Made by a program: the position numbers and the translations under genes. Below, in pieces: positions 1 through 23,495 of a stretch of DNA of 32,632 nt. The notes beneath the pieces are model-generated. The model was given only the letters and a program-made list of their open reading frames with translations, searched no databases and was not told the origin of the DNA. Within the stretch, counting starts at the first letter, position 1; each line of letters begins with the position of its first letter. The DNA is from Planctomycetota bacterium (GTDB taxonomy: Bacteria > Planctomycetota > Phycisphaerae > WQYP01), in assembly GCA_021831565.1 (NCBI GenBank), contig JAKBMM010000035.1, forward strand, positions 1 to 32,632. Direction: 5' to 3'.

Positions 1-305
1 ATACCTTGCGCGGCCGCGCGGAGGCCAGAAACACTCTGGCACAACCACTATTTACCACATCATTTTAAAATGCGCAAATTTCGCGGACGCGAATTATTTG
101 GTGAGAATCTACATGCAATTGCCCTGACGGACGGCCATGGATTTCCATCCACGGCTGCGGGGGTGGCGACCATGGAGCAGCCGCGAGGATCGCAATCCCG
201 CGGCCGTTTTCCGCGCCGCCGTGAACGGTTACGAAAAATCGTGGGGCGGTTCTCTCCATCCGTTGCGCGCCAGTGCTCTGTCACACCTGTAGGTGTGACA
301 GAGCA
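1..305. other. intergenic region without a supported gene
   Basis: Small open frames on both strands here lack a ribosome binding site and any recognisable protein motif. The stretch holds a GCGGCCGC site at 10-17, a short GCCAGA/TCTGGC hairpin at 24-40, and most of the perfect palindrome at 272-307, which is listed separately. The region lies 3' of plsC on the minus strand. Confidence 0.5.
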
Positions 306-16611: not shown

Positions 16612-18053
16612 TGCCTCTTGTGAATTTCCCCGCCGGCGTCGGTGTGGTTGCGCCGGTGGGTTCATCGCACCTGGCCGCGTCGCCATGGTACGTGACGATC
16701 ATCTATTTGGCGGCCGCGGCCCTGTTTGTCCTTTCCCTCAAGTGGCTCAATTCCCACAAGACGGCGCGGCGCGGTGTAAAGGCGGGCGAAATCGGCATGA
16801 TCGCCGCCATCCTGGCCACCCTCTTTTTGCCCGAAGTGCGGCATTACAACTGGATTCTCGCGGCCGGCATCGTCGGCGCGGCCATCGGCGCTCTGCTGGC
16901 GTTGCTCACGCCCATGACCGCGGTGCCGCAGCAGACCGCTCTTTCGCACGCCTTCGGCGCTCTGGCCGCCGCCCTGGTCGGCACCGCCGAATATTTCGCC
17001 CACTATCCCCATCTTTCCCCCGTGACCAGCGGCTCGATCGCTTTTGAAACCCTGCTGGGATACCTGACCTTCACCGGCAGTCTTGTGGCCGCCGGCAAAC
17101 TCCAGGAGGTGCTGCCCACCCGGCCGATCGGCTATAAGTTCCAGAATCCCATCAACCTTTCGGTCCTTGCCGCCGCGGTGGTCTGCGGCGTACTGATGGT
17201 CGTCGCGCCGCGGCACGAGATGGTCTTTCCGATCTTCATCGGCCTGTCCCTGCTTTTCGGCGTGCTGCTGATCATTCCGATCGGCGGCGGAGACATGCCC
17301 ACCGTCATCGCCCTCCTGAACAGCTACGCCGGTCTGTCGGCCTCGGCCATGGGTTTCGTGGTCAACAACAAGCTGCTCATCATCGCCGGCGCGCTGGAGG
17401 GATCGTCGGGCTTCATCCTCTCCATGATCATGTGCAAGGCCATGAATCGCTCGTTCCTCAACGTGCTTTTCGGCCAGGCCAAAATTGAGAAGGCCGCCAA
17501 GGCCGATGATATTTACGGCGGCAAGATCAAGAGCGTCACGGCCGAAGAGGTGGCCGCGATTTTGGACGGCGCCCGGCGCGTGGTGATTGTGCCCGGCTAC
17601 GGTTTGGCCGTGGCCCAGGCGCAGCACGCCACCGGCGAACTCTTCGAACTGTTGGATTCGCGGGGCGTGCAGGTGGAGTTTGCGATTCACCCCGTCGCGG
17701 GACGTATGCCCGGCCACATGAACGTGCTCCTGGCCGAAGCGGATATCCCCTACGACCGGCTCAAGGAGATGGACCAGATCAACTCGCAGTTCGAAGACGT
17801 GGACGTGGTGATCGTCAACGGGGCCAACGACGTGGTGAATTCGGACGCGCGCGACAACCCCAACAGCCCCATCGCCGGGATGCCGATTCTCAACGTGGAC
17901 AAGGCCCGCACCGTGGTGGTCATCAAACGCAGCTTGAGTCCCGGCTTCGCCGGCATCCCCAATCCTTTATTCGCCAAGGACAATTGCCTGCTGTTCTTCT
18001 CCGACGGCAAAAAAGCGACCATGGCCATTATTCAGGCTCTTAAAGAGCTTTGA
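16611..18053 (+). CDS. pntB: NAD(P) transhydrogenase subunit beta
   Basis: The beta chain carries most of the proton channel and the NADP(H)-binding domain III, and with PntAA/PntAB supplies NADPH. Several transmembrane helices occupy roughly residues 25-285; the soluble C-terminal domain has the VIVPGYGLAVAQAQ nucleotide-binding turn, IHPVAGRMPGHMNVLLAEA, VIVNGANDVVNSDAR and IKRSLSPGFAG, all diagnostic of PntB. AAGGA six bases upstream favours the ATG at 16611 over an in-frame GTG at 16608. Length 480 residues, usual for the family. Confidence 0.95.
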   Translation: MPLVNFPAGVGVVAPVGSSHLAASPWYVTIIYLAAAALFVLSLKWLNSHKTARRGVKAGEIGMIAAILATLFLPEVRHYNWILAAGIVGAAIGALLALLTPMTAVPQQTALSHAFGALAAALVGTAEYFAHYPHLSPVTSGSIAFETLLGYLTFTGSLVAAGKLQEVLPTRPIGYKFQNPINLSVLAAAVVCGVLMVVAPRHEMVFPIFIGLSLLFGVLLIIPIGGGDMPTVIALLNSYAGLSASAMGFVVNNKLLIIAGALEGSSGFILSMIMCKAMNRSFLNVLFGQAKIEKAAKADDIYGGKIKSVTAEEVAAILDGARRVVIVPGYGLAVAQAQHATGELFELLDSRGVQVEFAIHPVAGRMPGHMNVLLAEADIPYDRLKEMDQINSQFEDVDVVIVNGANDVVNSDARDNPNSPIAGMPILNVDKARTVVVIKRSLSPGFAGIPNPLFAKDNCLLFFSDGKKATMAIIQALKEL

Positions 18054-18174
18054 TGCGGCCGAGTACAAACCTGATGAACCTGTTACAATGTCGGTTGATG
18101 GGGCGGGACGGTTGCCGATAGCTGTAGTGACCGATTCTCCCGGTGTGCCGGGACAAGGATAGGGAGATTGGCAG

Positions 18175-19077
18175 GTGGGCATGGTATTAACACAACAGTC
18201 TTTTTTCTTTCCCAGTCTGGATAGCATCGTCAATGTGGCCAGCGTACCCCAACGGAGCGTCTTCCGTTATCCCGGTGGAAAAACATGGCTGGTGCCGCAG
18301 GTTCGGCGCTGGCTGGCGGCCCGGTCTTCCCCCCGCCTCTCGAGAGGCGAGAGAAAGGCGGGGCTTTTCCTTGAGCCTTTTGCCGGTGGCGGTATCGTTG
18401 GCCTCACGGTGGCGTTCGAGGGTTTGGCTGAGCGGGTATTGCTCGTCGAACGGGATCCCGACGTCAGCGCCGTGTGGCGTGTGATATTGAACGGACAAGC
18501 GGAATCGCTCGCGCAACGCATCCGAGAATATTCATTGACCCGGGATAATGTCCGCCTTGCTCTTGCCGCTCGTCCGCGGACACTGATGGACCGCGCCTTT
18601 CTGACGCTGTTGCGGAACCGCGTGCAACATGGCGGCATAATGGCGCCGGGCGCCAGCATCATGAAAGACGGCGAAAATGGGAAAGGAATCGGTTCACGCT
18701 GGTATCCGGAGACGCTCGCCAGGCGAATCCAGGAGATTTCAATACGGCGTGATCGCATCGGATTCGAGCAGGCCGACGCCTTCGCCATGATTGACTTTTA
18801 CAAGCAGGCGCAAAATATCTTATTCTTTATCGATCCGCCTTATACCGTCGCCGGAAAAAGGCTTTACCGTTTTTCTCAAGTGGATCACCCGCGACTTTTC
18901 CATCTGATGCGGACGGTCCGTGGTGATTTTCTCATGACCTACGATGATACGACGGAAGTACGGCGTTGGGCCGCTGACTGCGACTTTGACGTTGAAAAGG
19001 TCGCCATGAAGAGCCGCCAGCACACGGAAAAATATGAATTACTCATCGGGAAGAACCTGGATTGGACCCGTGGCTGA
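18175..19077 (+). CDS. DNA adenine methyltransferase (D12 class, Dam/M.DpnII-like)
   Basis: A 300-residue N6-adenine methyltransferase. It shows FRYPGGK (30-36), the FLEPFAGGG SAM-binding motif (65-73) and the catalytic DPPY (220-223), in the order of the alpha class. The start is probably the GTG at 18175, with GGGAG eight bases upstream; an ATG two codons later is possible. A CCCGG/CCGGG hairpin (18139-18152) lies in the leader. The gene converges on the NotI-like endonuclease gene and their 3' ends overlap by 39 bases. This pairing suggests a type II restriction-modification system in which the methylase protects host DNA. The target sequence cannot be read, but it should contain an adenine. 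Confidence 0.88.
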   Translation: MGMVLTQQSFFFPSLDSIVNVASVPQRSVFRYPGGKTWLVPQVRRWLAARSSPRLSRGERKAGLFLEPFAGGGIVGLTVAFEGLAERVLLVERDPDVSAVWRVILNGQAESLAQRIREYSLTRDNVRLALAARPRTLMDRAFLTLLRNRVQHGGIMAPGASIMKDGENGKGIGSRWYPETLARRIQEISIRRDRIGFEQADAFAMIDFYKQAQNILFFIDPPYTVAGKRLYRFSQVDHPRLFHLMRTVRGDFLMTYDDTTEVRRWAADCDFDVEKVAMKSRQHTEKYELLIGKNLDWTRG

Positions 19078-20130
19078 TTCGGCGCCGCCCCGGCGCGCCG
19101 TGACTTCGCCGTCATTTCCAAGCTTTTCAGTTATCTTGGCTTCAAATTCCATCAGCGAAACGGGCTGGCCGCCGGTCAGGCCCTCCACAGCGCCTTCGAG
19201 TGTTACGTTATAAGGGGATCCCATCATGAGTCTGATGGGATCACGGGTCTCGTCAAAGCTCGCCACGAACCACGCAATATCGGCGTTGGACAGATCCGAA
19301 ACGGTCCGCATGGAACCGAGGTTTCGGAAAAATGCCGCATCCACCACCACCGCCATCTTTTTTCCCCAGCGCCGCAGTGTCGGCACCTTGATTTGCAATT
19401 GCGGCATGAGCCTCTTCGGACCGCTGCTGCGATAGTCCGGTCTTCGCACACGGTCGGGGAATGGCAAGCCGGATCCTGCAAAATTGCGGATATGTTCAAA
19501 AAGCAGCCGCATCTTCTCGCCCGAGAAATAGACCGCCTGGATTTCAAGCGCACACCATCGCATGGGTGGAACATCAGGATGCACCAACACGCAGTCAATA
19601 TTTCCCACATCTTCCCGCACTCCGCTACGAGCTTCATCTGATTCTTCCGCAACAGGATTGTTTCCCATTTGTCCCGTGCCGATTGGTTGCGGGCGCTGTA
19701 AAAATCGTACTTCTTTCACAATTCGTGGTTGAGAAGTTCCCACCAGAGCTGATCCAACGGAATGGTAGATCGTTTCCGCCTGGTCAAAACGCGACGGGCA
19801 CACAACTCGCAAGTCGCCTTCCTGGCCGGAAACCGCTTCGGCAGAGCTCCCATGGCCGGTTTGCTTGTATAATCGTAGGGAGCAGACGCCGCCTTTCTTC
19901 CAGCATCGCCGCGGTTTATCGGGGCGACTTAAAAACGGGCATTGCATTTCAATGGGGTGGTCGGGCCCCATGGCGATTTCGGCTAATCGACGACGTTTCG
20001 TCCTGTCGAGTCGTAGAAAGGATTGACCATACCACTCTCCAATTCCGAATCGTGGCGCCATTTCATTTTTACTTACACTTTTTTTCATCGCCGCCTGATT
20101 GACTCCCATCTCGGCAAATTTTATCCGCAT
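19039..20130 (-). CDS. NotI-like type II restriction endonuclease
   Basis: Probably the cleavage partner of the adjacent adenine methylase. The N-terminal part (GIGEWYGQSF) and the cysteine arrangement CPF (64), CWKKGG (76), GVCSL (83) and VVCP (111) resemble the NotI family, in which four cysteines bind an iron atom. A PD-(D/E)xK-type centre is suggested by D179 followed by E196-x-Q198 (CALEIQ), with Gln in place of the usual Lys. The length, 363 residues, is close to NotI. The ATG at 20130 has AAAGG four bases upstream; ATGs at 20088 or 20058 and a GTG at 20157 remain possible. A very stable hairpin (20170-20203) precedes the start. The family call is from memory of motifs, not alignment. 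Confidence 0.68.
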   Translation of the reverse strand: MRIKFAEMGVNQAAMKKSVSKNEMAPRFGIGEWYGQSFLRLDRTKRRRLAEIAMGPDHPIEMQCPFLSRPDKPRRCWKKGGVCSLRLYKQTGHGSSAEAVSGQEGDLRVVCPSRFDQAETIYHSVGSALVGTSQPRIVKEVRFLQRPQPIGTGQMGNNPVAEESDEARSGVREDVGNIDCVLVHPDVPPMRWCALEIQAVYFSGEKMRLLFEHIRNFAGSGLPFPDRVRRPDYRSSGPKRLMPQLQIKVPTLRRWGKKMAVVVDAAFFRNLGSMRTVSDLSNADIAWFVASFDETRDPIRLMMGSPYNVTLEGAVEGLTGGQPVSLMEFEAKITEKLGNDGEVTARRGGAESATGPIQVLPDE

Positions 20131-20169
20131 GTTACCTTTTTCGATACCACACGTCACCGCACCCCTGAC

Positions 20170-20203
20170 CGCGGGCCTGTGACCGGCCCGTCACAGGCCC
20201 GCG
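20170..20203. promoter_or_regulatory. 14-base perfect inverted repeat upstream of the endonuclease gene
   Basis: CGCGGGCCTGTGAC (20170-20183) and GTCACAGGCCCGCG (20190-20203) pair perfectly around CGGCCC. There is no T-run on either side. It lies 40 bases before the presumed endonuclease start on the minus strand and about 200 bases before the sigma factor on the plus strand, so an operator or leader hairpin for the restriction gene is possible. Confidence 0.6.
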
Positions 20204-20400
20204 TGCAAAAATTGGCACGACATCGGTTTGACGCCGCCCCCGCCGCAAAGTATCATGTAATGACTTGTTTTGAGCTGTGAAACGGATTTCCAACTCTCCG
20301 CCACGGTTCATGCGCCAGGGGAAGGCCCTTCTAAAGAGAGCGACTCGTTCATTTAAGTAGTGCTATTTTGCGCCATCGCTTGGTCCGAAGGAGATGGATT

Positions 20401-21343: not shown

Positions 21344-22300
21344 ATGAAAGTCTCTAACAAGGTGGTGGGTCCATCGTTGGCGCTGTTTGCGGTTGCGGCG
21401 GGTGCGGCAGTGTTCGCCGCCGGGAACGCGCGGGGTGCTCCTTCTCTCGGGCAGATTCTCAAGTTCGATCAGCAGCCGCTCAATAACGTGAACATCAACG
21501 GAGCGGTGTACAACGGCCATGATGAAGCGAGTTGGGCGAGCATCAACACTGCTTCGGGCGGCTACAGCGGCCCCGGCGTCGCCGATGATTTCGCCGATCT
21601 CTACAACACTCCGGTTGTCCGCATAAGTTGGTGGGGATCGTACTCTGCGCCATCAGGAACGGTTATAACGCCGGTTCCGAACTTTCTGATCTCTTTTGAA
21701 GCGGACGTTCCCGTGTCTCCCAACAACCCATTCAGTCATCCCGGCTCGCCTCTATTGGTGCAGACCCTGACCCGCGACACGAGCGGAGGCCTGCCGCCGG
21801 CGGATCAATTTACGGAACAGTCGGTGTCGGGCGCTAGTAATTTATACTTCTATAATGGCGAGCTGTCTATTCCATTCCCAGAGCAGGCCAACACCGTTTA
21901 CTGGCTCAAGATCGCGGCCCTACTCCCCAGCCCCAGCCCCAGTGTAACATGGGGCTGGCATAACCGCGACTACACCACGCAAGATACGCTGGCTTCGACG
22001 CCGCCGGCGGTGACACCCGGCGAACACAATGCGAATACGGCCGCATTTCCCGTCTGGAGTTTCCAGGATGACGCGGTAACCAGCGCCTTGAACTATTTTC
22101 CCGCGAACGGCGTGGTCGATGAAACTAACTTTAAACCGCTGTTCTACCAAGACACCGTGGATGGCCCCACGGGCATCAGCAGCTTCTCGGAAGATATGGC
22201 CTACCAGCTTTACACCACGCCCGAACCGGCAACGCTGGGTTTGGTGGTCGTAGGTGGCTTGGGATTGCTGTTGAAGCGCAAGCAGACGCGTTCCGCCTGA
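21344..22300 (+). CDS. PEP-CTERM sorting domain protein, tandem copy 1
   Basis: A 318-residue secreted protein. An N-terminal signal peptide (about 1-31, ending AAGNARGA) is followed by a large beta-rich, Asn/Ser-rich domain without cysteines, and a C-terminal sorting signal: PEPATLG, a hydrophobic stretch (LGLVVVGGLGLLL) and KRKQ (from about 293). In PEP-CTERM systems exosortase recognises this signal and the protein goes to the surface or exopolysaccharide. AGGGG lies seven bases before the ATG. About three quarters of the protein is identical to the next gene. Function beyond surface display is unknown; the domain resembles no enzyme that could be recognised. Confidence 0.85.
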   Translation: MKVSNKVVGPSLALFAVAAGAAVFAAGNARGAPSLGQILKFDQQPLNNVNINGAVYNGHDEASWASINTASGGYSGPGVADDFADLYNTPVVRISWWGSYSAPSGTVITPVPNFLISFEADVPVSPNNPFSHPGSPLLVQTLTRDTSGGLPPADQFTEQSVSGASNLYFYNGELSIPFPEQANTVYWLKIAALLPSPSPSVTWGWHNRDYTTQDTLASTPPAVTPGEHNANTAAFPVWSFQDDAVTSALNYFPANGVVDETNFKPLFYQDTVDGPTGISSFSEDMAYQLYTTPEPATLGLVVVGGLGLLLKRKQTRSA

Positions 22301-22538: not shown

Positions 22539-23495
22539 ATGAAAGTCTATGGTAAGAAGATGGTCGGTCCATCGTTGGCGCTGTTTGCGGTTGCGGCGGG
22601 CGCGGCTATGTTCGCCGCCGGGAACGCGCGGGGGGATCCTTATCCTTGGCAGATTCTCAAGTTCGATCAGCAGCCGCTCAATAACGTGAACATCGGCGGA
22701 GCGGTGTACAACGGTACTGATGAAGCGAGTTGGGCGAGCTTAAACAGTTCGGGCGGCTTCAGCGGCCCCGGCGTCGCTGACGATTTCGCCGACCTCTACA
22801 ACACTCCGGTTGTCCACGTAAGTTGGTGGGGATCGTACCTGTCAACGACAACCGCGCCAACGCCGGTTCCGAGTTTTCAGCTCACGTTTGAATCGGACGT
22901 TCCCGCTTCTCCCACCAACTCATTCAGTCATCCCGGCTCGGTTCTGCTGACGCAGACCCTGACCCGTTCGACGAGCACGGGATTCCTGCCGCCGCCGGAT
23001 CAATTTACGGAACAGTTGGTAACAGGCACAAGCAATCTATACAAGTATAACGGCGAATTGTCGATCCCATTCCCGGAGCAGGCCAACACCGTGTACTGGC
23101 TCAAGATCGTGGCTCTGCTGAACCCCAACAGCACCAGTACATGGGGCTGGCACAATCGCAACTACACTCTGCAGGATACGCTGGCGTCGACGCCGCCGGC
23201 AGTGTCCCCCGGCGAGTACAATGCAGCTCCGGCTACCAGCCCATTTCCCGTCTGGAGTTTCCAGGATGACGCGGTAACCAGCGCTTTCAGCTATTTTCCC
23301 GCGAACGGCGTGGTTGAGGAAAGCAGCTTTACACCGTTGTTCTACCACGACACCGTGGACGGCCCCACGGGCATCAGCAGCTTCTCGGAAGATATGGCCT
23401 ACCAGCTTTACACCCCCGAACCGGCCACGCTGGGTTTGCTGGCCGCGGGCGGATTGGGATTGCTGCTCAAACGCAAGCGAATGCGTTCCGCCTGA
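22539..23495 (+). CDS. PEP-CTERM sorting domain protein, tandem copy 2
   Basis: A paralogue of the preceding gene with the same length (318 residues), a near-identical signal peptide, and a PEPATLGLLAAGGLGLLL tail ending in KRKRMRSA. Conserved blocks such as ILKFDQQPLNNVNI, GPGVADDFADLYNTPVV, LSIPFPEQANTVYWLKI and FPVWSFQDDAVTSA match copy 1, while loops with Ser/Thr/Pro differ. The start codons are 1195 bases apart, and upstream and downstream flanks are also duplicated, so a tandem segmental duplication is clear. Expected to be exported and anchored by an exosortase encoded elsewhere. An AGAGG sequence about six bases upstream is the ribosome binding site. Confidence 0.85.
   Translation: MKVYGKKMVGPSLALFAVAAGAAMFAAGNARGDPYPWQILKFDQQPLNNVNIGGAVYNGTDEASWASLNSSGGFSGPGVADDFADLYNTPVVHVSWWGSYLSTTTAPTPVPSFQLTFESDVPASPTNSFSHPGSVLLTQTLTRSTSTGFLPPPDQFTEQLVTGTSNLYKYNGELSIPFPEQANTVYWLKIVALLNPNSTSTWGWHNRNYTLQDTLASTPPAVSPGEYNAAPATSPFPVWSFQDDAVTSAFSYFPANGVVEESSFTPLFYHDTVDGPTGISSFSEDMAYQLYTPEPATLGLLAAGGLGLLLKRKRMRSA

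What the first reader, a model, noticed from the sequence alone, without database searches (positions are those of the whole stretch)
18175..20130. NotI-like endonuclease paired with an adenine methyltransferase
The endonuclease has four cysteines spaced like the iron-binding cysteines of NotI and an E-x-Q active-site variant, but its partner methylase is a D12-class N6-adenine enzyme. NotI's GCGGCCGC site contains no adenine, and GCGGCCGC occurs in this window (10-17 and 16710-16717). The system therefore probably has another, adenine-containing target, giving a potentially new specificity within this rare-cutter family. The two genes converge and overlap at their 3' ends by 39 bases.
Basis: partly seen in the sequence, partly recalled or inferred. 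Interest (0 to 1): 0.6.

Follow-up and report, generated by a model that had tools for sequence, protein, structure and literature searches.

The report
NotI-family restriction-modification cassette, target unknown
This is a small mobile bacterial DNA-defence cassette, a relative of the rare-cutting enzyme NotI with its protective methylase; the pairing occurs in many bacteria, and the argument that it must cut a new adenine-containing site does not hold, because the methylase's closest studied relative modifies cytosine.

Summary
A methylase (18175-19077, +) and an endonuclease (19039-20130, -) overlap tail to tail by 39 bp. The endonuclease is a true NotI-family member: Pfam NotI 212 bits, and its AlphaFold model matches only NotI (3c25) in the PDB. 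The Cys4 set and the D...E-x-Q site are almost invariant. The pair is a 2.17-kb insertion, absent from the same locus in a same-genus genome, and it recurs across many phyla and on plasmids.

"D12, therefore adenine, therefore not a NotI-type site" is unsafe: the methylase's nearest solved relative by sequence and fold is M.CbeI, which was annotated "D12 N6-adenine" but shown to make N4-methylcytosine in GGCC, the core of GCGGCCGC. GCGGCCGC in the window proves nothing, since host sites would be methylated.

New here: every family member with enough flanking DNA has exactly one of two partners, the D12-fold methylase or an unrelated m5C methylase. Endonucleases up to 83% identical carry different kinds, with at least 3-4 swaps on the tree. 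So either both act on cytosine, or the site holds A and C. Site-avoidance tests did not reveal the site. New member of a known kind, specificity undetermined.

The parts
18175..19077 (+). D12-fold (alpha-class) amino-methyltransferase, 300 aa; GTG start, ATG at 18181; motif I EPFAGGG at 18373-18393, DPPY at 18832-18843
   Evidence: Pfam PF02086 E 6e-10; AF2 pLDDT 89.7, top PDB folds M.CbeI then Dam; motifs near-invariant in 39 homologues
19039..20130 (-). NotI-family PD-(D/E)xK endonuclease, 363 aa from ATG (372 aa from GTG at 20157)
   Evidence: Pfam PF12183 212 bits; AF2 pLDDT 88.7, only significant PDB fold hits 3c25 A/B
19039..19077 (.). 39-bp tail-to-tail overlap of the two coding sequences
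   Evidence: most convergent homologous pairs overlap by 3-119 bp
19798..19941 (-). region holding the conserved Cys4 set (C73, C85, C92, C120), probable structural metal site
   Evidence: each Cys kept in 54/55 homologues, other Cys columns variable
19537..19596 (-). catalytic stretch D188 ... E205-x-Q207 (PD-(D/E)xK variant with Q for K)
   Evidence: 54/55, 55/55, 55/55 conserved; Q for K also reported in NotI (PMC4081073)
18062..20226 (.). whole inserted cassette, 2165 bp, GC 0.557
   Evidence: same-genus genome G001 joins window 18061 to 20227 with nothing between
18049..18060 (.). left boundary, TTTGATGCGGCC, imperfect copy of the right boundary
   Evidence: empty site in G001 has one copy, TTTGACGCCGCC
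20227..20238 (.). right boundary, TTTGACGCCGCC

Best explanation
A horizontally moving type II restriction-modification cassette of the NotI family. Shown: a NotI-fold endonuclease with a PD-(D/E)xK (E-x-Q) site and a conserved Cys4 set, and a D12-fold methylase with intact AdoMet (EPFAGGG) and DPPY motifs, inserted as a unit of about 2.2 kb next to pntB and travelling as a pair across phyla. Inferred: the endonuclease dimer cuts a palindromic site in incoming phage or plasmid DNA, and the methylase puts a methyl group on an exocyclic amino group in the same site of host DNA. My lean on the target base: N4 of cytosine in a GC-rich, GGCC-type site (about 0.5), rather than N6 of adenine in a site holding both A and C (about 0.4). 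The exact site is unknown.
For: R-M identity: endonuclease; methylase. Pairing: every family member with enough flank has one methylase partner; endonuclease and D12 distances co-vary (Mantel r 0.64, 0 of 2000 permutations). Mobility: empty site in the same genus; plasmid copies. Cytosine lean: closest solved relative is the GGCC-m4C enzyme M.CbeI; a D12 of the same wider clade sits next to a HaeIII-family (GGCC) endonuclease on a Nostoc plasmid; family members alternatively use a m5C methylase with nearly the same endonuclease; NotI itself cuts a GGCC-centred site.
Against: No activity shown. M.CbeI is only about 20% identical, and uncharacterised D12s score closer to the family than M.CbeI does (115-140 against 58 bits), so m6A is not excluded. 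The presumed recognition segments differ from those of M.CbeI. NotI is remote (TM about 0.5, 14% identity, no sequence-level hit in the PDB), so its site need not be shared. No site stood out in avoidance tests.
Confidence: 0.88

Rival explanations
1. One reading: the methylase is an N6-adenine enzyme and the endonuclease cuts a new, adenine-containing site.
For: Pfam D12 label and PADLOC type II methylase models; Dam and DpnM are next-best folds; most characterised D12 enzymes are m6A (general knowledge); public annotation says DNA adenine methylase.
Against: Closest characterised relative by sequence and fold makes m4C. Dam matches only at the N-terminus with 17 bits. If true, the site must also hold a C protectable by m5C, since 83% identical endonucleases have m5C partners.
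Confidence: 0.4
2. The methylase is an orphan or regulatory enzyme, only by chance next to the endonuclease.
For: Another D12 methylase and several N6_N4 methylases exist in the genome.
Against: Adjacency holds across dozens of genomes and many phyla, with co-varying distances and joint absence at the empty site.
Confidence: 0.03
3. A decayed, inactive remnant.
For: Draft genome in 86 contigs; no expression data.
Against: Both frames open, all catalytic and Cys residues intact, high-confidence folds.
Confidence: 0.06

Closest known systems
R.NotI (PDB 3c25; Pfam PF12183)
   Same: Fold (only significant PDB match, E 3.5e-7), E-x-Q active site, conserved Cys4 set
   Different: 14% identity, TM about 0.5; site unknown; Cys spacing apparently different; partner methylase of NotI not compared
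M.CbeI (PDB 7m6b; N4-cytosine, GGCC) and its relative DmtB
   Same: Full-length homology, DPPY and TYDD segments, same Pfam D12 label, top fold match
   Different: About 20% identity; partner endonuclease CbeI (GGCC); presumed recognition segment differs
E. coli Dam / DpnM (N6-adenine, GATC)
   Same: D12 fold, FxGG and DPPY motifs
   Different: Sequence match only in the N-terminal part, 17 bits; lacks the RLY...TYDD segment shared with M.CbeI
'NotI family restriction endonuclease' + 'DNA adenine methylase' plasmid pairs (pIJB1, Aeromonas 4-kb plasmid, Thermus pTbrSNM4-1c)
   Same: Same two gene families side by side; already annotated so in public records
   Different: Same-direction rather than convergent genes; endonuclease 48% (pIJB1, Aeromonas) or 36% over part of its length (Thermus) identical

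Membership tests
NotI endonuclease family (PF12183) | Pfam model score above cut-off | tested here: met
   212 bits against 22
NotI endonuclease family (PF12183) | NotI fold | tested here: met
   AF2 model, only significant PDB hits 3c25 A/B, E 3.5e-7, probability 1.00, TM about 0.5
NotI endonuclease family (PF12183) | D...E-x-Q catalytic residues | tested here: met
   D188, E205, Q207 conserved; Q in NotI per PMC4081073
NotI endonuclease family (PF12183) | Cys4 iron site | tested here: inconclusive
   Four near-invariant Cys; geometry, metal and NotI spacing not checked
NotI endonuclease family (PF12183) | Cuts GCGGCCGC | not testable with these tools
   Needs in vitro mapping; no avoidance signal
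D12-fold amino-methyltransferase (PF02086) | Pfam model, FxGG and DPPY motifs, Dam-like fold | tested here: met
N6-adenine D12 enzymes (Dam/DpnM kind) | Full-length homology to characterised m6A members | tested here: not met
   Dam and DpnM hit only at the N-terminus, about 17 bits
N6-adenine D12 enzymes (Dam/DpnM kind) | m6A product | not testable with these tools
   Needs methylation assay
Alpha-class N4-cytosine enzymes (M.CbeI kind) | Full-length homology including the TYDD segment | tested here: met
   57 bits, profile positions 34-291; alignment
Alpha-class N4-cytosine enzymes (M.CbeI kind) | m4C product at GGCC | not testable with these tools
   Needs methylation assay
PD-Lambda-5 defence system | Subunits A and B together | tested here: not met
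   Methylase hits the B model (E 1.8e-39); endonuclease hits no PADLOC model

The most novel reading that the evidence does not exclude
A NotI-fold family with a shared target site in which nearly identical endonucleases are protected interchangeably by chemically different methylases (an alpha-class D12-fold enzyme or an m5C enzyme), with a specificity different from NotI's: a new rare- or medium-cutting restriction specificity with a documented history of partner swapping.
Probability: 0.4. Interest if true: 0.5.

Novelty: new member of a known kind. Interest (0 to 1): 0.33.

Why it matters
NotI is the main rare-cutting enzyme of its fold, and no other NotI-family specificity is known to me. 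A family spread over many phyla and on plasmids could yield further rare cutters. The repeated swap between a D12-fold and an m5C methylase behind 80%-identical endonucleases constrains the site and is a clean natural case of partner exchange. It also warns that 'D12 = adenine' annotation can mislead predictions of specificity.

Tried and rejected
Sequence search of the PDB with the endonuclease or its family profile: no NotI hit; the link came from Pfam and fold comparison. Palindrome avoidance in about 1 Mb of the own genome against two relatives: general avoidance only. CTGGCCAG stood out (O/E 0.57), but carriers such as G016 are not low in it, so it was rejected. Site depletion inside 65 cassettes: GCGGCCGC 2 seen, 9.1 expected, p 0.006, not significant after 30 tests and not the most depleted. 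CGATCG as target (a m5C CGATCG motif is reported in Rhodobacter sphaeroides, source of the PvuI isoschizomer RshI, PMC6256690): no member of this family turned up from that species and there was no clear avoidance, so it was dropped. No paper giving a specificity or methylome for this family, or the chemistry of M.NotI, was found. Phage records hold no relative of the endonuclease.

Full report
Check of the observation. The two genes are present as described: methylase 18175-19077 (+) and endonuclease 20130-19039 (-), 39 bp of tail-to-tail overlap. Pfam names them NotI (PF12183, 212 bits) and D12 methylase (PF02086). GCGGCCGC occurs three times in the window, not two, which is what chance gives.

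The endonuclease. A scan of 84,980 species genomes gave 67 loci, of which 66 hold a recognisable relative. In a 55-sequence alignment the four cysteines (C73, C85, C92, C120) are each kept in 54, D188 in 54, and E205 and Q207 in all 55, while other cysteines vary. The AlphaFold2 model (pLDDT 88.7, pTM 0.83) has only two significant PDB matches, both chains of NotI bound to its DNA (3c25, E 3.5e-7, probability 1.00, TM about 0.5, 14% identity). Sequence alone does not reach NotI in the PDB, so the relation is real but distant. Q in place of the usual K is also reported for NotI, as is its Cys4 iron site (PMC4081073).

The pair as a unit. In every relative with enough flanking DNA there is exactly one methylase next to the endonuclease. 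Most have a D12-fold enzyme of the same family as here (43-79% identical), usually convergent and often overlapping at the 3' ends; eighteen have a C5-cytosine methylase (PF00145) instead; none has both. Endonuclease and D12 distances co-vary (Mantel r 0.64, 0 of 2000 permutations). The same-genus genome G001 carries the empty site: window 18061 joins directly to 20227, so a cassette of 2165 bp was inserted (or lost) between pntB and a sigma-factor gene, with an imperfect 12-nt repeat at its ends. Related pairs sit on plasmids, where public annotation already reads 'NotI family restriction endonuclease' and 'DNA adenine methylase'; divergent family members with m5C partners occur on other plasmids.

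Partner swapping. Endonucleases 77-83% identical have different partner kinds: L018, L021 and L022 with the D12 type, L025, L032 and L063 with m5C. The tree needs 4 changes, at least 3 forced by well-supported branches. If specificity is conserved at that identity (inference), the site must be protectable both by the D12-fold enzyme and by m5C: either both act on cytosine, or the site holds A and C.

Why 'D12, therefore adenine' fails. The methylase model (pLDDT 89.7) matches M.CbeI best (7m6b, E 5e-15), ahead of E. coli Dam (3e-13). The family profile finds M.CbeI over its full length with 57 bits; Dam and DpnM reach about 17 bits, at the N-terminus only. M.CbeI was itself annotated as a D12 N6-adenine enzyme, has DPPY, and was shown to make N4-methylcytosine in GGCC (PMC3425538). 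A relative of the same wider clade lies beside a HaeIII-family endonuclease. However, uncharacterised D12 enzymes score closer to the family than M.CbeI, so m6A stays open. The own genome has no C5-cytosine methylase but has several N6_N4-type ones.

Search for the site. Palindrome avoidance in about 1 Mb of the own genome, in the pooled loci, and inside 65 cassettes gave no site that survives controls. The specificity is undetermined.

Verdict. An ordinary-looking but well-supported NotI-family restriction-modification cassette. Shown: family, fold, intact motifs, pairing, mobility, partner swapping. Inferred: cleavage, protection, defence role. Unknown: the site and whether the mark is m4C or m6A.

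Noticed in passing
window 20170-20203: 34-nt near-perfect palindrome (CGCGGGCCTGTGACCGG/CCCGTCACAGGCCCGCG, 94% complementary, no loop) inside the cassette, just upstream of the endonuclease start; unique in about 1 Mb of the genome. Possible operator or terminator.
   Followed up: partly
window 18138-18154: 17-mer TCCCGGTGTGCCGGGAC, also found 12 times in about 1 Mb of the own genome, there within a conserved dispersed repeat of about 100 nt; absent from samples of three relatives.
   Followed up: partly
loci L002-L068: The tail-to-tail overlap of endonuclease and D12 methylase genes is recurrent (up to 119 bp) and often 106-119 bp in Acidobacteriota loci; a regulatory role by antisense transcription is possible.
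   Followed up: partly
G001:C64 (L075, L216): The same-genus genome lacks this cassette but holds a different NotI-family pair (46% endonuclease, 59% methylase) on another contig, suggesting repeated gain and loss.
   Followed up: partly
L081 (pGES-GZ, Klebsiella) and similar plasmids: Divergent NotI-family endonuclease with m5C methylase on a Klebsiella plasmid; related methylases on plasmids of Xanthomonas, Pseudomonas and Aeromonas.
   Followed up: partly
window 21344-22300 and 22539-23495: Two adjacent, closely similar 318-aa proteins with a C-terminal segment that looks like a PEP-CTERM sorting signal (no family search run), a tandem duplication next to the cassette.
   Followed up: no
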